Shown here one piece after another: positions 1 through 59,659 of a stretch of 64,000 bases of DNA. How positions within the stretch are numbered: the stretch's first letter is position 1; each line of letters begins with the position of its first letter. A program made the translations under genes and the position numbers. The DNA is taken from the NCBI RefSeq assembly GCF_009937995.1, contig NZ_AP021881.1:434001-498000 (forward strand), read 5' to 3'. The DNA is from Sulfuriferula nivalis (lineage in GTDB: Bacteria > Pseudomonadota > Gammaproteobacteria > Burkholderiales > Sulfuriferulaceae). Under the pieces are notes generated by a model that had not been told where the DNA came from, made no database searches, and saw nothing but the letters and a program-made list of their open reading frames with translations.

Positions 1-634
1 CAGGCATGCGGTGGTGGTCGAGATCAATGCCATCTGCTGTAATGCGGCGCTGATGCTTGGGCAACACCATGCGACCAGGAATGCCGACCACGGTCATCTC
101 TGCGCTAATATCTTCTATTACTACGGAATTGGCGGCTATGCGGGCATTCTGGCCAATGGTGATTGGGCCCAGTATCTTTGCCCCGGCACCTACTACTACG
201 CCATCGTTCAGTGTTGGGTGACGTTTGCCAGGATTCCACGTCGTACCACCAAGAGTGACACCGTGATACAGGGTAACGTCATTGCCAATTTCTGCAGTTT
301 CACCGATGACAACGCCGCAGCCGTGGTCGATGAAAAAACGGCGTCCTATAGTTGCGCCCGGATGGATGTCGATTTGCGTTAGCATGCGTGCAATAAAACT
401 GATACAGCGTCCGCCATAGCGTAGTTTGCGCCGCCATAATGCATGGGCGACGCGATACAGCAGCAGTGCATGAACGCCAGGATAAAGGCTGACTACTTCC
501 AGCATATTGCGGGCAGCCGGGTCGCGCTCAAATACACAGGTGATATCCTCGTGCACCATTCCCCATAAGGTTGGCTTAGACAATGCTTCAACCTGTGGGG
601 CTGCTTGGGTAGGGTTGTCAGCCAGTGCAGTCAT
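1..634 (-). CDS. cysE: Serine O-acetyltransferase (CysE/NifP type), 3' end cut by window
   Basis: The enzyme makes O-acetylserine from serine and acetyl-CoA, the precursor of cysteine. Next to nifV it most likely supplies cysteine for Fe-S cluster synthesis, as nifP/cysE1 does in Azotobacter. The reverse strand reads from ATG at 634 and stays open to position 1, about 211 residues. It shows an N-terminal helical part and then a left-handed beta-helix region with [26 protein letters not shown] and YHGVTLGG, the SAT active-site and acetyl-CoA signatures. It starts 17 bp after nifV ends, so the two are probably cotranscribed from the sigma-54 promoter at 1834-1848. The family is clear. The dedicated nif role is inferred from context. 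Confidence 0.9.
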
Positions 635-651
635 GGTGGGTTTCTCGTTAA

Positions 652-1782
652 TCACGATGGCATACCTGTACAGGCAGCATTTTCTAGATAGAAACGCTTT
701 AAATCATCGACGCTGGGTGTGCATTTGGTGAGGATGGCATGTATCCGTATCATATTTAGCAACGAATGTGCTTCCAGCTCGCTGAGGATTAGCCCAAGCT
801 TGGCGTAGGCATCAATGACTGAATGTGAACCTGAATGTTTACCTAATACAGTGCGGTGTTCCCGACCAACTTCAGTCGGGCTGAAGCCTTCGTAGTTGAG
901 TGGGTTCTTGATAATGCCATCCACATGGATGCCTGATTCATGGGTGAAAACTGCATCGCCAACTATGCTTTTGTTCACTGGAACAGGTCGTCCGGAGGCG
1001 GCCGCTACCAGCTGTGAGATGTGCGGGAATTGTGTTGTATCAATATTGCTCTCGATGCTATAGAGATGTCGCAGTGACATGACGACTTCTTCCAGTGGCG
1101 CATTGCCGGCGCGTTCACCTAGTCCGTTTACCGTTGTATTGGCGTGAGTAGCACCAGCGAGTATGGCTGCCAGTGTATTGGCAGTAGCCAGCCCCAAATC
1201 ATTATGCGCATGCATTTCAAGGTCGATATCGACTTCCTGACGTAGCAGGTTGAGACGTCCATAAGTGGCGAACGGATCAAGCAAGCCTAGTGTGTCTGCA
1301 AAGCGAAAGCGTTGCGCGCCTGCTTGCTGTACAGTTGCAGCTACGGTTAGCAGAAAATCACTATCTGCGCGTGAGGCATCTTCGCCACCGACACATACTT
1401 CAAAACCAAGGTCTAATGCGCGTGGTACAAATGCCTGTATCTGCTCCAGCACCCATTCACGATCACGTCCCAGTTTGTGTTTGATTTGGACATCCGACAC
1501 TGGAATGGAAAGATTAACAATGTTGACGTTACAACGGGCAATAGCAAGTAAATCAGATTCGCACATGCGTCCCCATGCCATGAGTCTGGCTGGTAAATGC
1601 AAATGGGTTATCGCCTGAATTAATTCAATTTCAGCTGTTCCCATCACTGGAATGCCAATTTCCAACTCTTGTACACCTGCACGCGAAAGCGCTTCGGCAA
1701 TAGCGATTTTCTCGTCTGCGCTGAATGCTACCCCAGCGGTTTGTTCGCCATCGCGTAGTGTGGTGTCGTTGATCGTTACCAT
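652..1782 (-). CDS. nifV: Homocitrate synthase NifV
   Basis: NifV condenses acetyl-CoA with 2-oxoglutarate to homocitrate, the organic ligand of the nitrogenase FeMo-cofactor. The protein (376 residues from this start) is a DRE-TIM metallolyase. It opens with the DTTLRDGEQ motif and has the metal-binding HAHNDLGLA segment, [13 protein letters not shown], and the homocitrate-synthase-type [11 protein letters not shown] and LGKHSG motifs. An in-frame ATG at 1806 would add eight residues. I prefer 1782 because known NifV proteins begin about here and because the predicted sigma-54 start site (about 1822) would leave only a 16-nt leader with no clear Shine-Dalgarno for 1806. A GGAAG lies 11 nt before 1782. 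A 2-isopropylmalate synthase is less likely given length, regulation and neighbours. Confidence 0.93.
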
Positions 1783-1833
1783 GATGTCATTGGCTTCCGT
1801 TAGCATGTTGAATAGTGCTTCAGATCATATTGA

Positions 1834-1848
1834 GCAATAGCTGTGCCA
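1834..1848 (-). promoter_or_regulatory. Sigma-54 (-24/-12) promoter of nifV-cysE
   Basis: The minus strand reads TGGCACAGCTATTGC, a full match to the consensus TGGCAC-N5-TTGC with the required 10-nt gap between GG and GC. Transcription would begin near 1822. With the NifA site at 1943-1958 this gives nifV-cysE its own nitrogen-regulated promoter. Confidence 0.9.
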
Positions 1849-1942
1849 ACTTGATATTTTTTAATTTAGTCTTTATTTTTCAATGTGTTGTGTATATTTT
1901 AATGATTTGTTTTTATAGGCGGATTGGGGCGAATGTCGGGTT

Positions 1943-1958
1943 TGTCGTTTTTGTAACA
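1943..1958. promoter_or_regulatory. NifA upstream activator site for nifV
   Basis: TGT-N10-ACA (TGT at 1943-1945, ACA at 1956-1958) is the NifA-binding consensus. Its centre lies about 128 bp upstream of the predicted nifV start site, within the usual range for activation by DNA looping. Confidence 0.8.
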
Positions 1959-2002
1959 GGGGCTGTCAGTGTAGATATGATGAGGTAATGCAGGTACGAA
2001 GT

Positions 2003-2023
2003 TTGAGTGTCAGGGACACTCAA
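2003..2023 (-). terminator. Perfect hairpin after fdx, possible weak terminator
   Basis: A 9-bp perfect stem (TTGAGTGTC / GACACTCAA) with a 3-nt loop lies 5 bp past the fdx stop on the minus strand. No T run follows it, so it may be a partial terminator or an mRNA-stabilising end rather than a strong intrinsic terminator. It separates the isc operon from the independently promoted nifV. Confidence 0.5.
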
Positions 2024-2028
2024 TTTGC

Positions 2029-2367
2029 TTAGTGTTCTTCGTGCGCAAGATTGAGTGAGTAGCGTGGTAATTCCACCAGTAAGTCAGTTTGCCGTAGCAC
2101 GACCTGGCAGGCCAGACGTGAATGCGGATTGAGTCCCCATGCTTTGTCGAGTTGATCTTCTTCATCTTCTTCAGGTGCGGTCAGTGAGGCATATCCTTCA
2201 TGAATGATGACGTGGCAAGTGGCGCAGGCGCAGGATTTCTCACAGGCGTGTTCTAGTTCGATATTGTTTTTAAGCAGAGCATCACACAGGAAACCACCTG
2301 CTTTGGCAGCGAATGTTGCACCTTCTGGACACAGGGTGTCATGAGGCAGTATGGTAATCTGTGGCAT
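2029..2367 (-). CDS. fdx: Isc-type [2Fe-2S] ferredoxin
   Basis: This is an adrenodoxin-like ferredoxin of the Isc system, 112 residues, which supplies electrons during cluster assembly on IscU. The cluster ligands appear in CEKSCACATC (C-x5-C-x2-C) and in a later cysteine in LACQVVL, the Isc-ferredoxin pattern. GGAG lies 9 nt before the ATG. It is the last gene of the minus-strand isc run, 23 bp after hscA. In this setting it may serve nitrogenase cluster assembly. Confidence 0.92.
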   Translation of the reverse strand: MPQITILPHDTLCPEGATFAAKAGGFLCDALLKNNIELEHACEKSCACATCHVIIHEGYASLTAPEEDEEDQLDKAWGLNPHSRLACQVVLRQTDLLVELPRYSLNLAHEEH

Positions 2368-2390
2368 CGCGATTTCTCCAGGTGTGGGGG

Positions 2391-4274
2391 CTAAACGTGG
2401 CTTTCCAGGTCCGTTAATTTATGTCCGGTGAGGGCGCGTTGTATACTCGCATCCATGCGCCGGGCAGCGAAATTCTGGGTAGCCTGGTTGAGCGCATCAC
2501 TTGCCTGCCGGAGAGGTTTCAAACTGTCACCATCGCCAGTTTCTATCACTTCTGCCAGTGCGTGCATGGCTTTTGTCAATGTGATACGTTCGGCAGGAGA
2601 GAGCAATGTGTCGCCATCCTGATGAATGGCGGCATCAGTGGCATCAAGCAGGCGTCGTGCATCTACCTGTGCTTCGCGTAGCATACGCACTTGCATGTCA
2701 ATGTCTGCTTTGCCGTAGGCATCCTGCAGCATTTGTGCAACTTGTGTGTCGCTCAAACCATATGATGGTTTGACGATAACAGATGTTTCTATCCCCGTGC
2801 TTTGTTCGCGGGCACTGACATTTAACAGTCCGTCGGCATCGACTTGCAGCGTTACCCGGATACGTGCTGCACCCGCAACCATGGCTGGAATGCCACGTAA
2901 TTCAAAGCGCGCCAGTGAGCGGCAATCTGCCACTAATTCACGCTCGCCTTGCAGCACATGAAAACTCATGGCGGTCTGACCGTCTTTGAAGGTGGTAAAT
3001 TCCTGCGCCTGTGCAACCGGGATACTGGCGTTGCGTGGGATGATTTTTTCCACTAATCCGCCCATGGTTTCTATACCCAGCGATAGCGGGTTGATATCCA
3101 GCAATAACCATTCTTCGTTACCACGATTACCCGCCAGTACATTGGCCTGCATTGCCGCACCAAGGGCGACAACCTGATCAGGGTCGACATTGGTTAGAGG
3201 GGTCTGCTGGAAATAGTCGGCTACTGCCTTACGTATATGTAACATGCGGGTGGAACCGCCAACCAGTACTACACCTTTGACGTCTTCGATCCGTAATTTT
3301 GCATCACGCAACGCTTTACGTGTGGGTTTGAGTGAACGTGCCACCAGCTCTGCGGTGATGGTCTCAAAAGTTTCTCGTGGCAACAGGATATCAACAGTGC
3401 GGCCATTGCTCAGCGTGGTGTTTATGTGAGTGATGGTCTCAGTCGATAATGCTTCTTTAGCTGCACGTGCCTGGGTTAGCAGTCGTTGTGTATCATGTGC
3501 GTTCAGTGCGGGCAGCGCCAATTGGTCGATGATCCAGCTTGCAATGGTACGATCGAAATCATCACCACCCAGTGCTGAATCACCGTTAGTGGCCAGTACC
3601 TCGAAAATGCCTCGTGATAGTTTGAGGATGGAAATATCAAATGTCCCACCTCCCAGATCATAAACGGCATATATACCTTCGGCAGCATTATCCAGACCGT
3701 AGGCAATAGCAGCAGCCGTTGGCTCATTCAATAGTCTTAACACAGTTAACCCGGCCAATCTGGCCGCATCCTTGGTGGCCTGGCGTTGCGCATCATCAAA
3801 ATACGCAGGGACAGTGATAACGACACCAGTCAGTTCACCGCCTAGTGCGGCTTCGGCGCGCAGGCGCAGGGCTTTTAGTATTTCAGCGCCGACTTCAACT
3901 GGTGTTTTAATACCCGCGGCAGTAGCGATACTGACCATGCCTGGGGAGTCAATTAGTTGATAAGGTATTTGTGCTGTGTCTGCTACATCTGCCAGTCCAC
4001 GCCCCATCAGGCGTTTGGCTGAGGCTATGGTATTGAGGGCGTCGCGACTTTGTTGAGCCAGCGCGGTATGCCCCGTCTCTATACTGCCATCTGCCAGATA
4101 ACGAACCACTGACGGTAATAAACTACGGTCGAGTTCATCACGAATGACTGTGCCCGAACCGCTGATAACGCTGGCTACCAGTGAATTGGTCGTGCCGAGA
4201 TCAATACCTACCGCCAACCGGTGTTGATGCGGTGCGGCGGACAGGCCGGGTTCGGATATTTGTAACAGTGCCAT
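2391..4274 (-). CDS. hscA: Hsp70-family Fe-S chaperone HscA
   Basis: HscA is the specialised Hsp70 that drives release of clusters from IscU. The 627-residue protein has the Hsp70 phosphate loop (GIDLGTTNS), the second nucleotide motif ([12 protein letters not shown]) and the adenosine motif ([10 protein letters not shown]), followed by a substrate-binding domain and helical lid. Length and the short N-terminal extension fit HscA rather than DnaK. The usual J-domain partner gene hscB is absent: iscA lies 33 bp upstream and fdx 23 bp downstream, with no room for it. The partner LPPVK motif is kept in IscU at 99-103. Confidence 0.94.
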
Positions 4275-4307
4275 AATAAAAGTCCCGGTTTATTAGTCAG
4301 AAAATGG

Positions 4308-4631
4308 TCAGACCTTGAAACTCTCACCACAGCCGCAAGCATCCTTGACGTTGGGATTGTTGAATTTGAAGCCCTCATTCAAGCCTTCGCGCACAAAGTC
4401 CAGTTCGGTACCTGCCAGAAAAACATGGCTTTTCGGATCGACTAATACGCTTACGCCGTAGCTTTCAAACAGCAAGTCATCTTCTGCGGTTTCGTCAGCA
4501 AATTCGATGGCATAAGCCAAGCCTGAACAGCCGCTGGTTTTAACCGCCAAGCGCAGGCCAACGCCTTTACCGCGCTTTTCGATAAAACTGCTGATGCGTT
4601 TAGCTGCGCTTTCAGTCAGGGTGACGGTCAT
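4308..4631 (-). CDS. iscA: A-type Fe-S carrier IscA
   Basis: A 107-residue A-type carrier that receives or donates Fe-S clusters or iron during maturation. The three ligand cysteines are visible in [10 protein letters not shown] and near the C-terminus in [15 protein letters not shown] precedes the ATG. It is the second of two adjacent A-type genes; the upstream one is ErpA-like. Sequence features (short N-terminus, [10 protein letters not shown]-type opening) favour IscA. Confidence 0.9.
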
Positions 4632-4652
4632 AATGGTCTCCTTGGGTTGCGT

Positions 4653-5033
4653 TTACATCGAGAACGAACTGCCGCAACCACAAGTGGAAGCTGCATTTGG
4701 GTTCTTGATGAGAAAACGGGCGCCTTCCAGACCGTCTTCATAATCGATTTCGGCACCGGCCAGATACTGGAAACTCACCGCATCCACGATCAGATTGACG
4801 CCATGCTTGGCGATGCAGGTGTCGTCTTCGTTGATGGTTTCGTCAAAGGCAAAACCATACTGGAAGCCGGAACAGCCACCACCGGTGACATAAGCGCGTA
4901 AATTTAATTTCGGATTGCCTTCTTCCACGATCATGTCTTTCACTTTCAGTGCAGCACTTTCAGAGAACTGGATCGGAGTGGCAAAGTCGGTGAAATTTGC
5001 CGGTTGGGTGGTTTCAGTCATGGTTTCTAACAT
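4653..5033 (-). CDS. erpA: ErpA-like A-type Fe-S carrier
   Basis: A 126-residue A-type carrier whose body ([41 protein letters not shown]) is of the ErpA subfamily, which delivers clusters to target proteins. The start at 5033 is chosen because AGGAG lies 7 nt upstream. Longer in-frame starts overlap iscU. The gene sits between iscU and iscA. erpA is usually unlinked to isc in gammaproteobacteria, so its position inside the operon is notable. Confidence 0.88.
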
Positions 5034-5064
5034 GGTCAGCTCCTGTTTATCAGCGGTTAAAATA

Positions 5065-5490
5065 TCAATGGGTGGCAACGGGTGCGCAGATTGGATAGTC
5101 GGTTTCGCCTGCTTCGTGTTTGGAGCGATAATCCGCCACGGCTGCCTTGATCGCATCTTCGGCGAGGATGGAGCAGTGGATTTTTACCGGCGGTAAAGCC
5201 AGCTCTTCGGCAATGGCGGTGTTTTTGATATCCAGCGCCTGTTCCAGTGTTTTGCCTTTAACCCACTCGGTTACCAGCGAACTGGATGCAATTGCAGAAC
5301 CGCATCCGTAGGTCTTGAATTTTGCGTCTTCGATTACGCCATCAGCATTGACCTTAATTTGCAATTTCATTACGTCACCGCATGCAGGTGCGCCGACCAT
5401 GCCGGTGGCTACGCTGTCGTCGTCCTTGTCAAAGGTACCGACGTTGCGCGGGTTTTCGTAATGGTCTATGAGTTTGTCGCTGTATGACAT
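5065..5490 (-). CDS. iscU: Fe-S scaffold protein IscU
   Basis: IscU is the scaffold on which IscS-derived sulfur and iron form [2Fe-2S] and [4Fe-4S] clusters. The 141-residue protein has ligands C37 (APACGD, with D39), C63 (YGCGSA) and C106 (KIHCS), and the HscA-recognition LPPVK at 99-103. It lacks the central ferredoxin-like and C-terminal Nfu domains of NifU, so this is an Isc-type scaffold although it sits in a nif neighbourhood. It lies 15 bp after iscS. Confidence 0.95.
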
Positions 5491-5505
5491 AGTGTTCTCC
5501 TGAAT

Positions 5506-6717
5506 TTAGTGTGCAGCCCATTGCACCGAGTTGATGTCGATGCCGTCCTTGTACATATCCCATAGCGGCGACAGCTCGCGCAGTTTGCCGATTTTTTCCT
5601 TAATCAGTTTGATCGCGAAATCCACTTCCTCTACCGTAGTGAAGCGCCCCAGACTGAAGCGGATGGAGCTGTGTGCCAGTTCGTCGTTGCGACCCAGTGC
5701 GCGCAGCACGTAGGAGGGTTCCAGACTGGCCGAGGTACAGGCGGAACCGCTGGAAACCGCAATGTCCTTGATCGCCATTAGCAACGATTCGCCCTCGACA
5801 TAGTTGAAGCTGATGTTGAGGTTGTGCGGTACGCGCTGGGTCATGTCACCGTTCACATAAACTTCTTCCAGCTCCATGAAGCCGGCGAGCAGGCGATCGC
5901 GCAGCTGGCGGATACGTGCGTTTTCGGCAGTCATTTCTTCGGCGGCAATCCGGTAAGCCTCGCCCATACCGACAATCTGGTGAGTGGCCAGCGTGCCAGA
6001 ACGCATGCCGCGTTCGTGACCGCCACCATGCATCTGCGCTTCCAGACGTATACGCGGCTTGCGGCGTACGTATAGCGCGCCTATGCCTTTAGGGCCATAA
6101 GTTTTGTGGGCGGAAAACGACATCAGGTCTACTTTGAGTTTGCTGAGATCAATTTCTACCTTGCCGGTCGCTTGCGCAGAATCAACGTGAAAAATAATGC
6201 CTTTGTCACGGCAGATCTGGCCTAGTTCAGCAATTGGCTGAATTACGCCGATCTCGTTATTAACGAACATCACCGATGCCAGGATGGTGTCTGGGCGTAT
6301 TGCCTGTTTGAATACGTCCAAGTCGAGCAGGCCGTCTTCGCGCGTATCCAGATAGGTGACTTCAAAACCCTCGCGTTCGAGTTCACGGCAGGTATCGATA
6401 ATTGCCTTGTGTTCGGTCTTTACCGTGATCAGATGCTTGCCTTTAGCTTTGTAGAAATGCGCCGCGCCCTTGATCGCTAAATTGTTGGATTCGGTTGCGC
6501 CGGATGTCCACACAATTTCTTTGGAGTCGGCATTGATCAGTTTGGCAACTTGTTCGCGCGCCTCCTCGACAGCTTTGTCAGCATCCCAGCCGTAAGCGTG
6601 TGAACGACTGGCCGGATTACCAAACATCACGGTCAGATAGGGAATCATTTTCTGCGCCACGCGCGGATCAACCGGGGTGGTTGCGGAATAGTCGAGATAT
6701 ATAGGTGACTTGGGCAT
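5506..6717 (-). CDS. iscS: Cysteine desulfurase IscS
   Basis: A PLP enzyme that removes sulfur from cysteine and passes it as persulfide to IscU. The 403-residue protein has the PLP lysine K205 in [10 protein letters not shown] and the mobile catalytic loop [10 protein letters not shown] with C327. Length and loop match IscS (group I) more than NifS. It leads the operon iscS-iscU-erpA-iscA-hscA-fdx. No iscR precedes it. Instead a sigma-54 promoter (6776-6790) and a NifA site (6867-6882) lie upstream. The Shine-Dalgarno is weak, but the start matches the family N-terminus ([13 protein letters not shown]). Confidence 0.95.
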
Positions 6718-6775
6718 AGTGTCGTTGTATCGCGAGTAAAGTTTGTCGGTTAACAGTGAGTACGTTCCACTATCA

Positions 6776-6790
6776 GCAAATAGCGTACCA
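6776..6790 (-). promoter_or_regulatory. Sigma-54 promoter of the isc operon
   Basis: The minus strand reads TGGTACGCTATTTGC. GG and GC have the required 10-nt spacing and one base differs from TGGCAC-N5-TTGC. The predicted start site is near 6764, giving a leader of about 47 nt before iscS. Confidence 0.82.
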
Positions 6791-6866
6791 ATGCGATATT
6801 ATTTTATAAGTAATTGATTTTATGATATTTATTTTATTATCGTGGGTTGGTGAAGATTGTTGGATT

Positions 6867-6882
6867 TGTATGATTTGGTACA
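6867..6882. promoter_or_regulatory. NifA upstream activator site for iscS
   Basis: TGT-N10-ACA with symmetric flanks (TTTGT ... ACAAA), centred about 110 bp upstream of the predicted isc operon start. This matches the NifA-binding consensus and ties the Isc genes to nif control. Confidence 0.8.
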
Positions 6883-6975: not shown

Positions 6976-7203
6976 TTATTTGGGGATTTCTGAGGGTTTG
7001 TAATTACTGAAATGGCCTTCGCGGGCTGCATGACTACGTGCACGTTTGCGCAAGACGTCAATCTTGCTTTTGGGCATAGGCATGGACACGAGTTTTTCCA
7101 GTTGTGCGCTACCACATTCCGGGCATGCTATTACGGTGGTAGATCGGACCAGTAACTCGAATTTATTGTTGCAATTGCTACAATGGTAATCATAAATAGG
7201 CAT
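6976..7203 (-). CDS. FmdB-family zinc-ribbon protein
   Basis: A 75-residue protein starting MPIYDYHCSNC, with two CxxC knuckles (CSNC and CPEC) forming the FmdB/CxxC_CxxC_SSSS zinc ribbon, followed by a basic tail. The start at 7203 is set by AGGAGG a few bases upstream. FmdB-type proteins are named after a putative regulator of formamidase genes, but their biochemical role is uncertain. The sigma-54 promoter at 7254-7268 places this gene among nitrogen-regulated genes next to nifA. Similar small zinc-ribbon genes occur in other nif clusters; that parallel is from memory. Confidence 0.85.
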   Translation of the reverse strand: MPIYDYHCSNCNNKFELLVRSTTVIACPECGSAQLEKLVSMPMPKSKIDVLRKRARSHAAREGHFSNYKPSEIPK

Positions 7204-7608: not shown

Positions 7609-9234
7609 ATGGCTAAAACACTGGATGTAAATAGGCGTTTGGAGTTGTCCACCATTTATGAAGTTGGCAAAATTCTGAGCTCTTCGCTCGATTTGTCCAA
7701 GACGTTCCGTGAGGTTTTAAATCTGTTATCCATTAACTTGGATACGCGTCGAGGGATGATTAGTTTGTTGCAAGAGTCAGGTGAGTTGCATTTAATTGGT
7801 GCAAGCGGCTTGTCGGCGGATGAATTTAAGCGCGGACGTTTTAACTCTGGGGAAGGTGTAACAGGTCGTATCCTGCAAACGGGTATGCCAGTCGTTGTGC
7901 ACGATATTTCCAAGGAGCCGCTTTTTCTCAATCGTACAGGCTCGCTAGACGAAGTAGCAACCCATCCTATTGCTTTTATTGGTGTGCCGATTAAGGCTGG
8001 ATCAGAAACGATCGGTGTGTTGAGTATAGATCGCTTGGCAGAAAAACAGGGTCAAAAATTTCAGGATGATGTTCAGCTATTGACAATGGTGGCTAATCTG
8101 ATTGGGCAGGTTGTGCGTTTGAACCAAACTGTAACGGCAGATCGAGCACTACTACTGCAGGAGCAGCAACGTCTGAAAAGCGAATTGCATGGTAAATACA
8201 GTCTAGATAATGTAGTAGGCTACTCCAAGCCCATGCAGGAAGTTTTCGCGCAAGTGCATCAGGCCGCGCCTGGAAATGCTACTGTGTTACTGCGTGGTGA
8301 GAGCGGTACTGGTAAGGAAGTCATTGCTCGTGGTGTACATTTTCTCAGCCCACGTAAGGACGGCCCCTTTATTAAAGTTAATTGTGCTGCGTTGACTGAA
8401 ACCCTACTCGAATCTGAATTGTTTGGCCATGAAAAAGGCGCTTTCACGGGTGCACAAGCTGAACGTAAGGGACGCTTTGAGCAAGCTCACGGCGGAACGC
8501 TGTTTCTGGATGAGATCGGCGATATTTCGCCCGCATTTCAGGCCAAGCTGTTGCGTGTATTACAGGAGCGAGAATTTGAGCGCGTTGGTGGTAATCGTTC
8601 CATAAAGGTCAATGTACGTTTGATTACTGCGACTAACCGCAATCTGGAACAGGCGGTGTCTAAGGGTGAGTTTCGGGCTGATCTTTATTACCGCATCAAT
8701 GTAGTAAGTATATTCCTTCCACCGCTGCGTGACCGGCGCGAAGATATACCTTATCTGGTGGAACGTTTTCTCAGTAAATTTAATCAAGAAAACAAGCGCA
8801 AACTTACTTTGTCGCCTGAGTCTATGCAAGTGCTGGTTAACTGTTACTGGCCAGGTAATGTGCGCGAATTAGAAAATTGTGTAGAGCGTACAGCTACTAT
8901 GGCACGTACCAGTGTTGTTCGCGAAGTCGACTTTCCTTGTCAGCATGCCAAATGTCTCACTCAGACACTGCACGGCGATGTCGTGCCTATTCCCATTGTC
9001 ATTCAACCTGTGCACGCTGAAAAGAAGCCTGCGATAACTGATAGTGCCAGTCATGAGCATGTGGTTTCTGAACCTGTTGCCGTATCGCCTCCATCCACTG
9101 AGCGCGAACGGTTGATATGGGCACTGGAACAATGTGGTTGGGTACAGGCGAAAGCGGCACGTTTGCTTAATATTTCACCAAGGCAGATGGGTTACGCGTT
9201 ATTGAAATACAACATAGAAGTGAAGAAATTCTGA
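7609..9234 (+). CDS. nifA: Nif-specific sigma-54 activator NifA (oxygen-sensitive class)
   Basis: NifA binds TGT-N10-ACA sites and uses ATP to open sigma-54 promoters of nif genes. The 541-residue protein has an N-terminal GAF domain (about 20-170), a central AAA+ domain with Walker A GESGTGKE (230-237) and the sigma-54 contact loop GAFTGA (277-282), and a C-terminal Fis-type helix-turn-helix (about 505-535). Cysteines 412, 424, 444 and 449 give C-X11-C-X19-C-X4-C at the end of the AAA+ domain and linker. This is exactly the motif of NifA proteins that sense oxygen/redox directly (rhizobia, Herbaspirillum, Azospirillum). No nifL is present. TAGGAG precedes the ATG. Confidence 0.96.
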
Positions 9235-46313: not shown

Positions 46314-47429
46314 TTAGCGCATGGTCTCCCACCCTGTGTCATCTGCTCTGTGTTCCCGTTTTATAGATGGGGCTGATGTGGCTAGCGGTATCGCTTTGAT
46401 ACGTGTGCGCACTATCTTCATCACCCCACCGCAACATTGGCAACGTATCGCTGGTCTGGGTTGCGCTGGCGGCGGATTGTTCCGTCGCCATAGGTGGGTC
46501 AGCTGTAGCTGGGTGAGTAGTTTGCTATTGGGATGCAGGTAGCCAAAGTTGCGGGCGCGGCGGTAGCCTTTGGGCAGAATGTGTTGCAGTATCAGTCGCA
46601 GGAAGGCTACACCACTCAAGGTACGGGTTTCCATTTGTTTGGTTTGGCTGTTCCGGTAACGGAAGGTGACCTGACCATGCCGGTCGGAGAGGATGTCTTT
46701 CTCCTGTATCACCCCCCGATACAGATAGCGCCCAAGGTAGATCAGAGCGTGCTGTCCAGTGCCGACGGCTTTGCAATCCACCACCCAATCGGTCGGGTAA
46801 TCGTTTGGCAGGGTGAGTCCTGCTTGTCTGATGCCTGCCAGTAATTTGGCACGAAATACTTTGGCCAGGGCTTTGTGGTTAAACAGGTAGTTGCCGTGTT
46901 TATGACGCATGCGTCGCTGTTTGGGGTTAAAGGCGACAGCGGGCATGACGAGATGCACATGGGGGTGATAGTCCAGTCGGCGGTTATGGGTATGCAGTAC
47001 AGTCACCGCCCCTGCGCTGCCGCGCAGCTTGTTGTCGTTTTGGCTGAAGGTGTTGACTGTTTCCCACGCGCAGCGTGTGATCAAGTCATACATGACGCGC
47101 TGATGTTGCCAGGCCAGTGTGCGCAACTGGGCGGGCACGGTGAAGGTGAGCATGAAGTAGTTGGCGGGGATGGATTTGTGTAATTGCTGGTCTATCCAGC
47201 GCTGTGATTCGTGCGCCTGGCAATGCGGGCAATGCCGATGACCGCAGGAATGTGGCAGGTAGCTGGGTGTTTGACAATCATCACAGGCAAGTTGCATCCT
47301 CGGGCTCATCTGGCTACGGCAGGTTTGAAAGGCGGTTAAGGCAGCTTGCTGGCTGGGCAATAGGTGATGACCGTGTTGTGCAAGCAGTTTAGCTGCGTAG
47401 GTTGCTACGATGTGCGCCAGTCTGATCAT
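46314..47429 (-). CDS. IS91-family HUH (Y2) transposase
   Basis: A 371-residue transposase: N-terminal zinc-binding domain (CDDC ... CGHRHCPHC, Zn_Tnp_IS91), then the rolling-circle nuclease with HUH motif HPHVHLVMP, and two tyrosines in YLGRYLYRG (Y-x3-Y). ATG at 47429 overlaps the TGA of the frameshifted recombinase (ATGA), giving coupling. A TTG 15 bp earlier is less likely. Domain layout is intact, so it is probably active. Confidence 0.92.
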
Positions 47430-48339
47430 TTGACTTTGCCCCAATGAATGTGGAATTTCTCCATTAATTGATTAAGGCGAGTGTGTGCGCTCTGATGGCG
47501 TTGTTCGGTGAGGTGGGTGTAGCGGATGGTGGTGAGGATGGACTGGTGTCCGAGTATCTGCTGAATTTCGAGTAAATCGATGCCAGCTTCTATCAGGTGG
47601 GTGGCATAGCTGTGGCGCAGGCTGTGTGGTGTAATTCTTTTTTTAAGCCACAGTCACGGGTCACTTGACCCAAGGTGGTCTGGATACCACCACGATCCAG
47701 CGGGGTGCGTGCCAAGTGCGATTTGGCAAGACCGCCGTGTCGATTAGGAAAGAGCAAGCTTGGGTTGCGATGGGTGAGCCAGAAACGGCGCAATACCTGC
47801 AAGGTGTTCTCTGATAACGGCACCAATCGATCACGGTTGCCTTTGGCGTTGCGTACTTGCACCCGCATCCGATCCGCATCGATATCCCCTACCTGCAAGC
47901 GTAAGCCTTCGCCTAATCGTAAGCCCAGGCTGTAGAGGGTGAAGAAGAATACGCGGTAGCTCAATACGCGGGTGGCCATGAAGATTTGTTGTGCCTGGGC
48001 GACGGTAATGATGTCGGGCAGGCTATATGACTTGGGTGGTTTAACCAGATCCGCACCTGGCCAGGGTTGGCTGAGTACATGGGCATAATAGAACTTCAGT
48101 CCATACAGATCATGTTTGAGCGTACTCCATGAATGGGTATCCAGGATGCGAACAAAATAGTCGGTTAATTGTGGCTTGGTGAGCGCGTCTATCTGGTCAT
48201 TAAAATACACCGCTGCGCGCCGTACGCCGTGTGAATACAAGGCGATGGTTTTAGGCTGCATGCCTCTGAGCTTGAGGCAATTCAGCAGTCGCTGGTGATT
48301 GTGCTCGAAGTGCGCGGGGATGGGTGTGGGGGCTGTCAA
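47426..48339 (-). CDS. Tyrosine recombinase split by a -1 frameshift (copy 1)
   Basis: Frame 0 encodes 248 residues (stop near 47593) with the SAM-like N-domain and the first catalytic Arg (GLRLGEGL), but ends soon after a run of seven A (47638-47644 on the plus strand as T). Reading in the -1 frame after this run gives [22 protein letters not shown] and IRYTHL, supplying the HxxR, His and nucleophile Tyr, and reaches TGA at 47426 (about 304 residues in all). TTA-AAA-AAA-G is a classic slippery site, so programmed frameshifting is likely. A simple inactivating indel in the ancestor is the alternative. Confidence 0.85.
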
Positions 48340-57633: not shown

Positions 57634-58749
57634 TTAGCGCATGGTCTCCCACCCTGTGTCATCTGCTCTGTGTTCCCGTTTTATAGATGGGGCTGATGTG
57701 GCTAGCGGTATCGCTTTGATACGTGTGCGCACTATCTTCATCACCCCACCGCAACATTGGCAACGTATCGCTGGTCTGGGTTGCGCTGGCGGCGGATTGT
57801 TCCGTCGCCATAGGTGGGTCAGCTGTAGCTGGGTGAGTAGTTTGCTATTGGGATGCAGGTAGCCAAAGTTGCGGGCGCGGCGGTAGCCTTTGGGCAGAAT
57901 GTGTTGCAGTATCAGTCGCAGGAAGGCTACACCACTCAAGGTACGGGTTTCCATTTGTTTGGTTTGGCTGTTCCGGTAACGGAAGGTGACCTGACCATGC
58001 CGGTCGGAGAGGATGTCTTTCTCCTGTATCACCCCCCGATACAGATAGCGCCCAAGGTAGATCAGAGCGTGCTGTCCAGTGCCGACGGCTTTGCAATCCA
58101 CCACCCAATCGGTCGGGTAATCGTTTGGCAGGGTGAGTCCTGCTTGTCTGATGCCTGCCAGTAATTTGGCACGAAATACTTTGGCCAGGGCTTTGTGGTT
58201 AAACAGGTAGTTGCCGTGTTTATGACGCATGCGTCGCTGTTTGGGGTTAAAGGCGACAGCGGGCATGACGAGATGCACATGGGGGTGATAGTCCAGTCGG
58301 CGGTTATGGGTATGCAGTACAGTCACCGCCCCTGCGCTGCCGCGCAGCTTGTTGTCGTTTTGGCTGAAGGTGTTGACTGTTTCCCACGCGCAGCGTGTGA
58401 TCAAGTCATACATGACGCGCTGATGTTGCCAGGCCAGTGTGCGCAACTGGGCGGGCACGGTGAAGGTGAGCATGAAGTAGTTGGCGGGGATGGATTTGTG
58501 TAATTGCTGGTCTATCCAGCGCTGTGATTCGTGCGCCTGGCAATGCGGGCAATGCCGATGACCGCAGGAATGTGGCAGGTAGCTGGGTGTTTGACAATCA
58601 TCACAGGCAAGTTGCATCCTCGGGCTCATCTGGCTACGGCAGGTTTGAAAGGCGGTTAAGGCAGCTTGCTGGCTGGGCAATAGGTGATGACCGTGTTGTG
58701 CAAGCAGTTTAGCTGCGTAGGTTGCTACGATGTGCGCCAGTCTGATCAT
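57634..58749 (-). CDS. IS91-family HUH (Y2) transposase, copy 2
   Basis: Identical in translation to the protein at 46314-47429, with the zinc-binding CGHRHCPHC, the HPHVH motif and the YLGRY pair. Start at 58749 by the same ATGA overlap. Confidence 0.92.
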
Positions 58750-59659
58750 TTGACTTTGCCCCAATGAATGTGGAATTTCTCCATTAATTGATTAAGGCGA
58801 GTGTGTGCGCTCTGATGGCGTTGTTCGGTGAGGTGGGTGTAGCGGATGGTGGTGAGGATGGACTGGTGTCCGAGTATCTGCTGAATTTCGAGTAAATCGA
58901 TGCCAGCTTCTATCAGGTGGGTGGCATAGCTGTGGCGCAGGCTGTGTGGTGTAATTCTTTTTTTAAGCCACAGTCACGGGTCACTTGACCCAAGGTGGTC
59001 TGGATACCACCACGATCCAGCGGGGTGCGTGCCAAGTGCGATTTGGCAAGACCGCCGTGTCGATTAGGAAAGAGCAAGCTTGGGTTGCGATGGGTGAGCC
59101 AGAAACGGCGCAATACCTGCAAGGTGTTCTCTGATAACGGCACCAATCGATCACGGTTGCCTTTGGCGTTGCGTACTTGCACCCGCATCCGATCCGCATC
59201 GATATCCCCTACCTGCAAGCGTAAGCCTTCGCCTAATCGTAAGCCCAGGCTGTAGAGGGTGAAGAAGAATACGCGGTAGCTCAATACGCGGGTGGCCATG
59301 AAGATTTGTTGTGCCTGGGCGACGGTAATGATGTCGGGCAGGCTATATGACTTGGGTGGTTTAACCAGATCCGCACCTGGCCAGGGTTGGCTGAGTACAT
59401 GGGCATAATAGAACTTCAGTCCATACAGATCATGTTTGAGCGTACTCCATGAATGGGTATCCAGGATGCGAACAAAATAGTCGGTTAATTGTGGCTTGGT
59501 GAGCGCGTCTATCTGGTCATTAAAATACACCGCTGCGCGCCGTACGCCGTGTGAATACAAGGCGATGGTTTTAGGCTGCATGCCTCTGAGCTTGAGGCAA
59601 TTCAGCAGTCGCTGGTGATTGTGCTCGAAGTGCGCGGGGATGGGTGTGGGGGCTGTCAA
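58746..59659 (-). CDS. Tyrosine recombinase split by a -1 frameshift (copy 2)
   Basis: Identical to the gene at 47426-48339, including the run of seven A (plus-strand T at 58958-58964). That both copies keep the same split, with the downstream frame intact, means either a working frameshift or very recent duplication of one defective copy. Confidence 0.85.

What the first reader, a model, noticed from the sequence alone, without database searches (positions are those of the whole stretch)
1834..6882. An Isc-type Fe-S machine appears to be under NifA/sigma-54 control
iscS-iscU-erpA-iscA-hscA-fdx is normally a housekeeping operon run by IscR. Here iscR is missing, a sigma-54 promoter (6776-6790) and an exact TGT-N10-ACA NifA site (6867-6882) stand before iscS, and nifV-cysE follow with their own sigma-54 promoter and NifA site. 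No nifU or nifS is seen. The cell may have a nitrogen-regulated second Isc system in place of NifUS.
Basis: partly seen in the sequence, partly recalled or inferred. Interest (0 to 1): 0.8.

Follow-up and report, generated by a model that had tools for sequence, protein, structure and literature searches.

The report
Nitrogen-fixation-controlled second Isc operon
A nitrogen-fixing sulfur bacterium carries, beside its everyday iron-sulfur cluster factory, a second copy of that factory placed in the nitrogenase gene cluster behind nitrogen-fixation switches, apparently doing the job that the NifU protein does in textbook nitrogen fixers.

Summary
Window 2029-6717 (minus strand) encodes iscS-iscU-erpA-iscA-hscA-fdx. 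A sigma-54 box (6775-6790) and a NifA-type site (6867-6882) precede iscS; nifV has its own pair (1833-1848, 1943-1958). Of 23 nif-linked isc operons with visible upstream DNA, 21 carry both sites; 0 of 31 housekeeping isc operons do.

The genome also has an ordinary iscR-led isc operon, no SUF scaffold and no NifU. So the operon probably replaces NifU, not NifU plus NifS.

It is a recurrent module: 23 of 89 examined nifV-bearing genomes have it, 35 have NifU, none has both, 31 have neither. One genus relative, G007, lost its iscS, most of iscU, hscA and fdx, so it is not indispensable.

Open-access papers already report isc or hsc genes in NifU-less nif clusters, so this is a well-defined variant of a known kind. 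Expression and function are inferred.

The parts
1..655 (-). cysE-type serine acetyltransferase, nif-linked (runs off the window; whole gene at genome C1:433801-434655)
   Evidence: open frame; named by resemblance to CysE in my reading and by the annotated cysE beside nif genes; no family search of its own
652..1806 (-). nifV, homocitrate synthase
   Evidence: TIGR02660, 528.2 bits, cut-off 462.9
1833..1848 (-). sigma-54 -24/-12 box of nifV (11 of 12 consensus positions)
   Evidence: a box within 71 bp of nifV in 14 of 16 nif-type loci examined
1943..1958 (-). TGT-N10-ACA NifA-type site of nifV, 94 bp upstream of the box
2029..2367 (-). fdx, Isc-type [2Fe-2S] ferredoxin
   Evidence: TIGR02007, 158.9 bits, cut-off 132.1
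2391..4274 (-). hscA, Fe-S assembly chaperone (no hscB partner in this operon)
   Evidence: TIGR01991, 856 bits, cut-off 708.55
4308..4631 (-). iscA, A-type carrier
   Evidence: TIGR02011, 170.6 bits, cut-off 150.6
4653..5033 (-). erpA, A-type carrier; marks the nif-type operon
   Evidence: NF010147, 182.8 bits, cut-off 117; present in 24 of 24 nif-type operons
5065..5490 (-). iscU scaffold, 141 aa, LPPVK kept, C-terminal tail with a cysteine
   Evidence: TIGR01999, 226.3 bits, cut-off 192.4; NifU_proper only 136.5 of 273.3; alignment
5506..6717 (-). iscS cysteine desulfurase
   Evidence: TIGR02006, 750.7 bits, cut-off 643.2; NifS model 478.8 of 530.75, below cut-off
6775..6790 (-). sigma-54 -24/-12 box of iscS, TGGTACGCTATTTGCT
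6807..6819 (-). IHF-type match between box and NifA site (exact match in only 6 of 18 relatives with both sites)
6867..6882 (-). NifA-type site TGT-N10-ACA, 76 bp upstream of the box
6976..7203 (-). FmdB-type zinc-ribbon ORF between nifA and iscS
   Evidence: TIGR02605, 55 bits, cut-off 31.3; a similar ORF beside nif genes in L084, L087, L088, L090, L093, L101, L104, L115 and L027
7609..9234 (+). nifA, sigma-54 activator, divergent from the isc operon
   Evidence: TIGR01817, 738.5 bits, cut-off 528.85

Best explanation
A second, nitrogenase-dedicated ISC machine. When fixed nitrogen runs out, NifA binds at 6867-6882 and, with DNA bending, drives sigma-54 RNA polymerase at 6775-6790 to transcribe iscS-iscU-erpA-iscA-hscA-fdx; nifV-cysE follow from their own promoter of the same type. 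IscS takes sulfur from cysteine (nif-linked CysE raises cysteine supply), IscU builds the cluster, Fdx supplies electrons, HscA (with HscB lent by the housekeeping operon) releases it, and IscA/ErpA pass [4Fe-4S] units to NifH, NifB, NifQ and NifDK. So separate IscU, Fdx and carrier proteins do what NifU does as one polypeptide, and NifU is missing. A NifS-like desulfurase elsewhere in the nif region is kept, perhaps for steps that IscS serves poorly. Shown here: gene content, sites, their conservation, absence of NifU and SUF, presence of the iscR-led operon. Inferred: NifA binding, induction, cluster delivery to nitrogenase, HscB sharing, division of labour with the NifS-like protein.
For: Site pair in 21 of 23 nif-type operons with visible upstream DNA, in 0 of 31 upstream regions of housekeeping iscS and 0 of 19 of housekeeping iscR; shuffles 5 of 3800. 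No NifU over cut-off in this genome or in the nine other nifV-bearing genus members; no SufB/D, control found in 14 of 14. In the genus the ten nifV-bearing genomes are exactly the ten with a second IscU match, of 18. Among 89 nifV-bearing genomes: 23 nif-type operons, 35 NifU, 0 both, 9.0 expected if independent. The IscU loci of the 29 NifU genomes that have an IscU-type gene were opened: none is of nif type. Fixed architecture: erpA in 24 of 24, iscR in 0 of the 23 with visible upstream DNA. In the five nif-type genomes from outside the order (G153, G167, G230, G268, G279) it is the only IscU-type scaffold found. Catalytic IscS motif 20 of 20 and LPPVK 20 of 20. In A. vinelandii the IscU/NifU difference is reported to lie in regulation more than activity (PMC10669500, passages).
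Against: No expression or mutant data. G007 fixes its nif cluster with erpA-iscA, a 36-residue iscU remnant and the NifS-like gene only, without nif iscS, hscA or fdx (a 91% complete MAG), and 31 of 89 nifV-bearing genomes have neither system, so neither is strictly needed. In A. vinelandii Isc and Nif replace each other only in part (title and review passages). Proteins of the two operons of this genome remain similar (IscS 80%, IscU 84%), so division of labour is not proven by sequence. Two of 23 nif-type operons lack the site pair by my criteria (L098 no NifA site, L127 no box). Genomes are related, so the exclusion count overstates independence; within the order sample alone the chance figure is 0.014.
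Confidence: 0.75

Rival explanations
1. General booster: NifA raises overall Isc capacity when demand rises, but the products mix freely with the housekeeping ISC and are not dedicated to nitrogenase.
For: High similarity to housekeeping proteins and all known catalytic motifs kept; no hscB in 15 of 24 nif-type operons, so HscB must be shared there; 31 of 89 nifV-bearing genomes manage with neither NifU nor this operon.
Against: In five genomes the nif-type operon is the only IscU-type system found, so there it does not merely add to a housekeeping ISC (their SUF content was not searched). Own operon architecture and NifU exclusion suggest a function that NifU also covers.
Confidence: 0.2
2. 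Passenger: the operon travelled with the nif island and is redundant, on the way to loss.
For: G007 has lost most of it; G605 shows hscA alone beside nifA; the G001 copy groups with copies from other families, which suggests transfer.
Against: Intact frames and motifs in 9 of 10 nifV-bearing genus members and conserved sites over long divergence.
Confidence: 0.05
3. The sites are fortuitous and the operon is constitutive or runs from another promoter.
For: Single TGT-N10-ACA sites occur at chance rate in this DNA.
Against: Spacing and position conserved in 21 of 23 against 5 of 3800 shuffles for the first 19.
Confidence: 0.03

Closest known systems
NifU-NifS-NifV block of Azotobacter-type nif clusters
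   Same: Cysteine desulfurase plus scaffold beside nifV, cysE, nifW; nitrogen-fixation promoters; Fe-S supply for nitrogenase (established for NifUS; inferred here)
   Different: Scaffold is IscU-type without the ferredoxin and Nfu domains of NifU; desulfurase is IscS-type; ErpA, IscA, HscA and Fdx are added
Housekeeping iscRSUA-hscBA-fdx operon
   Same: Protein families and gene order of iscS, iscU, iscA, hscA, fdx
   Different: No iscR, erpA inserted between iscU and iscA, hscB missing in 15 of 24, sigma-54/NifA sites
Rhodoferax antarcticus nif cluster (PMC5374385, passages)
   Same: iscU and iscA copies in the nif cluster, nifU missing
   Different: Authors left the significance open; regulation and comparative distribution not treated in the passages seen
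Acid-mine-drainage fosmid DX-1A-14 (PMC3912193, passages)
   Same: hscA and erpA between nifA and nifB, nifS without nifU, sigma-N/NifA sites predicted
   Different: No iscS or iscU reported in the passages seen: a partial form, like G007 or G605 here
Herbaspirillum seropedicae nif region (PMC3093359, passages)
   Same: nif genes interspersed with hes, fdx, hsc genes in seven NifA/sigma-54 operons
   Different: Annotated as nifU and nifS; whether these are IscU/IscS of the present type was not checked (an Oxalobacteraceae MAG, L054, has the present type)
Mesorhizobium loti iscN-iscU (PMC3538637, passages)
   Same: NifA/RpoN promoter before an IscU-type scaffold; double mutant partly defective in fixation
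   Different: Two genes only, another architecture

Membership tests
ISC machinery | IscS, IscU, IscA, HscA, Fdx of the equivalog families | tested here: met
   all over curated cut-offs
ISC machinery | HscB co-chaperone in the operon | tested here: not met
   33-base gap between iscA and hscA; HscB only in the housekeeping operon
ISC machinery | IscR regulator in the operon | tested here: not met
   absent here and in all nif-type operons with visible upstream DNA
NIF machinery (NifUS) | three-domain NifU scaffold | tested here: not met
   no match over the TIGR02000 cut-off in this genome; two NifU_N proteins, both IscU-type
NIF machinery (NifUS) | NifS-type desulfurase | tested here: inconclusive
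   operon desulfurase is IscS; a separate NifS-like protein scores 481.3 against 530.75 bits
NifA/sigma-54 regulon | -24/-12 box plus upstream TGT-N10-ACA | tested here: met
NifA/sigma-54 regulon | NifA- and nitrogen-dependent expression | not testable with these tools
   no expression data
SUF machinery | SufB/SufD scaffold | tested here: not met
   0 matches in the genome, control 14 of 14

The most novel reading that the evidence does not exclude
The nif-type Isc operon is a distinct, horizontally moving nitrogenase-maturation module of Beta- and Gammaproteobacteria that evolved as an unbundled NifU: scaffold, electron donor and carriers as separate proteins, with an IscU adapted to nitrogenase clients by its C-terminal tail (a cysteine in 20 of 24 nif-type against 4 of 20 housekeeping IscU tails), and it excludes NifU wherever it settles.
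Probability: 0.35. Interest if true: 0.65.

Novelty: new variant of a known kind. Interest (0 to 1): 0.5.

Why it matters
How far ISC can replace NIF in maturing nitrogenase is an old question in Azotobacter and a practical one for moving nitrogenase into hosts whose mitochondria have an ISC-type system but no NifU. If these bacteria do run nitrogenase on a NifA-controlled ISC set, they show which extra parts (ErpA, IscA, HscA, Fdx, the IscU tail) and what regulation are enough, and give natural part lists to test.

Tried and rejected
Rejected: 'no nifS in the cell' (a NifS-like gene exists); 'a recent local duplicate of the housekeeping operon' (no nif copy is sister to its own genome's housekeeping copy); 'a single origin is shown' (the free tree needs two changes of the label, only 3% of bootstrap trees have one; the one-clade tree is 17 log units worse but not rejected, p-AU 0.204). 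The first version of my count had 19 nif-type genomes; opening further loci added G167, G230, G268 and G279, and one of these (L127) lacks the box, three lack the tail cysteine; the IscU loci of NifU genomes were then opened too. The tree was not rebuilt with the four added loci. G142 has a lone second IscU gene and G280 a duplicated iscR-led locus; neither is of nif type.

Led nowhere: the plasmid search brought mostly housekeeping isc, with the Methylococcus plasmid as its one nif hit opened. Exact IHF matches are not conserved (6 of 18). Structure prediction was not used. Ten literature searches of the open-access library gave no paper describing a complete NifA-controlled isc operon as a NifU replacement; subscription papers are not held, so this is a weak absence. 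All papers cited were seen as passages only.

Full report
What is there. The window is genome C1:434001-498000 of a 3.44 Mb, 99.94% complete genome. On the minus strand lie iscS, iscU, erpA, iscA, hscA and fdx (2029-6717), then nifV and a cysE-type gene; nifA is divergent at 7609-9234 with an FmdB-like ORF between. Further on the same strand, just outside the window, I read nifW and fixABCX-like frames by eye (only nifW was used as a query later). The genus is most likely Sulfuriferula: a genus-mate's contig (G016:C23, 497,992 bases) has the same length as a record titled Sulfuriferula sp. MAG (L048).

The switches. The iscS box and NifA site stand at 6775-6790 and 6867-6882, the nifV pair at 1833-1848 and 1943-1958. 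In 138 kb of this genome only four boxes reach 11 of 12 positions: nifH (12 of 12), its divergent neighbour, nifV and iscS; each has a TGT-N10-ACA upstream. At the looser cut of 10 there are 32 boxes, 22 inside ORFs, and more than in mononucleotide shuffles (5-10), so the box alone proves nothing; 7 of the 32 have a TGT-N10-ACA within 220 bp, six of these intergenic. In relatives the pair recurs: of the first 20 nif-type operons 19 had visible upstream DNA, 19 of 19 had a box 53-89 bp before iscS and 18 of 19 the NifA site; of four more found later, three have both and one (L127) has no box. Housekeeping operons: upstream of iscR 0 of 19; upstream of iscS 3 of 31 have a box and 0 of 31 the pair. 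Dinucleotide shuffles of the first 19 upstream regions give the pair in 5 of 3800. Some relatives are near-identical (G008/G012, G009/G010, G167/G279), so these are not all independent.

The rest of the genome. A second operon, cysE-iscR-iscS-iscU-iscA-hscB-hscA-fdx, lies at C1:1.33 Mb. The only NifU_N proteins are the two IscU; NifU_proper finds nothing over its cut-off; SufB/D is absent where the control finds it in 14 of 14 genomes; one short Nfu-domain protein sits at C1:985.6 kb, next to an ORF I read by eye as PurL. A third desulfurase, closest to NifS (481.3 bits, cut-off 530.75), lies at C1:375056-376210 with NifZ, a DUF3024 protein and NifT, downstream of nifB. So nitrogenase here must draw on one of two ISC systems plus, perhaps, this NifS-like enzyme.

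A module, not a singleton. In the genus, 10 of 18 genomes have nifV over its cut-off and the same ten have a second IscU match. Nine keep the operon; in G007 only erpA-iscA, a 36-residue iscU remnant, nifV, nifW, nifA and the NifS-like gene are seen. nifV over cut-off was found in 57 of 399 genomes of the order (8 of them in the genus) and 31 of 321 of the class (one of them this genome). Taking the 49 and 30 others with the ten of the genus gives 89. NifU_proper: 35 (17 order, 18 class, 0 genus). Nif-type isc, that is an isc operon with erpA, without iscR and in nif company: 23 (9 genus; G351, G367, G383, G393, G454, G536, G547, G592, G622; G153, G167, G230, G268, G279). For G454 and G268 no nif gene is on the fetched stretch and I assign them by architecture (and for G268 by the site pair). 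Both: 0, where independence would give 9.0; kinship makes that an overstatement. I opened the IscU loci of the 29 NifU genomes that have an IscU-type gene: 26 of 26 are iscR-led; those of G142, G280 and G486 are iscR-led or a lone iscU; six NifU genomes have no IscU-type hit. Neither: 31. In twelve of these (L106-L117) I looked around nifV and saw no isc operon; G605 has hscA beside nifA. A Methylococcus sp. EFPC2 plasmid carries the module too, with hscB and annotated nifL, nifV and nifW, and so does an Oxalobacteraceae MAG, L054.

Anatomy. Of 24 nif-type operons (23 plus the plasmid), erpA is in 24, hscB in 9, fdx seen in 20 (two of the other four are cut by a contig end), nifA next door in 12. 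Housekeeping operons have iscR in 19 of 19 with visible start, hscB in 20 of 20 and no erpA. The nif IscU keeps LPPVK in 20 of 20 and IscS its SSGSACTS loop in 20 of 20. A cysteine in the IscU tail is found in 19 of the first 20 and 1 of the 4 added, against 4 of 20 housekeeping; I cannot say what it does.

History. On a tree of five joined proteins from 40 operons the nif label needs two changes (shuffled mean 13.7); one clade is neither shown (3% of bootstrap trees) nor rejected (p-AU 0.204). No nif copy is sister to its own genome's housekeeping copy, and the G001 copy joins G536 and G622 of other families rather than its own genus. Few origins and movement with the nif island are the simplest reading.

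Mechanism and limits. NifU joins IscU-like, ferredoxin and Nfu domains; A. vinelandii nifU mutants are only impaired in diazotrophic growth, IscU can partly stand in, IscS and NifS are reported not interchangeable (PMC10669500, passages), and a 2007 study's title speaks of limited functional replacement. That fits what is seen here: IscU, Fdx and carriers as separate NifA-driven genes, NifU gone, a NifS-like gene kept. It is inference. M. loti shows that a NifA-driven IscU-type pair matters in part (PMC3538637, passages). Against strict need stand G007 and the 31 genomes with neither system.

Prior reports. R. antarcticus: iscU and iscA in a nif cluster without nifU, significance left open. 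Mine-drainage fosmid: hscA and erpA between nifA and nifB. H. seropedicae: hes, fdx, hsc among nif genes in NifA/sigma-54 operons. Ten searches found no account of the complete module or of its exclusion of NifU, in open-access papers only.

Noticed in passing
G007:C89 (L085, L104): nif cluster with only erpA-iscA and a 36-residue iscU remnant left of the nif isc operon: a natural partial deletion.
   Followed up: partly
L123, L124, L127, L128, L101: Genomes outside the order whose only IscU-type scaffold found is the nif-type operon; their other NifU_N hits are weak, SufU-like ones or none.
   Followed up: partly
31 of 89 nifV-bearing genomes have neither NifU_proper nor a nif-type isc operon; how they feed nitrogenase is open.
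   Followed up: partly
L028, L038, L044, L046, L047, L130-L133, L137: Housekeeping isc operons with a second, about 40% identical IscS-like gene between iscR and iscS.
   Followed up: no
window 46314-48339 and 57634-59659; genome C1:393535-395560: The same pair of ORFs (376 and 248 aa) three times, as a mobile element would be.
   Followed up: no
genome C1:380422 and 380660: Divergent pair of sigma-54 boxes (10 of 12), each with a TGT-N10-ACA site 115 or 91 bp upstream, before two non-nif-named genes.
   Followed up: no
window 6976-7203: FmdB-like zinc-ribbon ORF that keeps company with nifA in many of these clusters.
   Followed up: no
G001:C6 (L083): Its nif isc operon groups with those of other families, not with its own genus.
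   Followed up: partly
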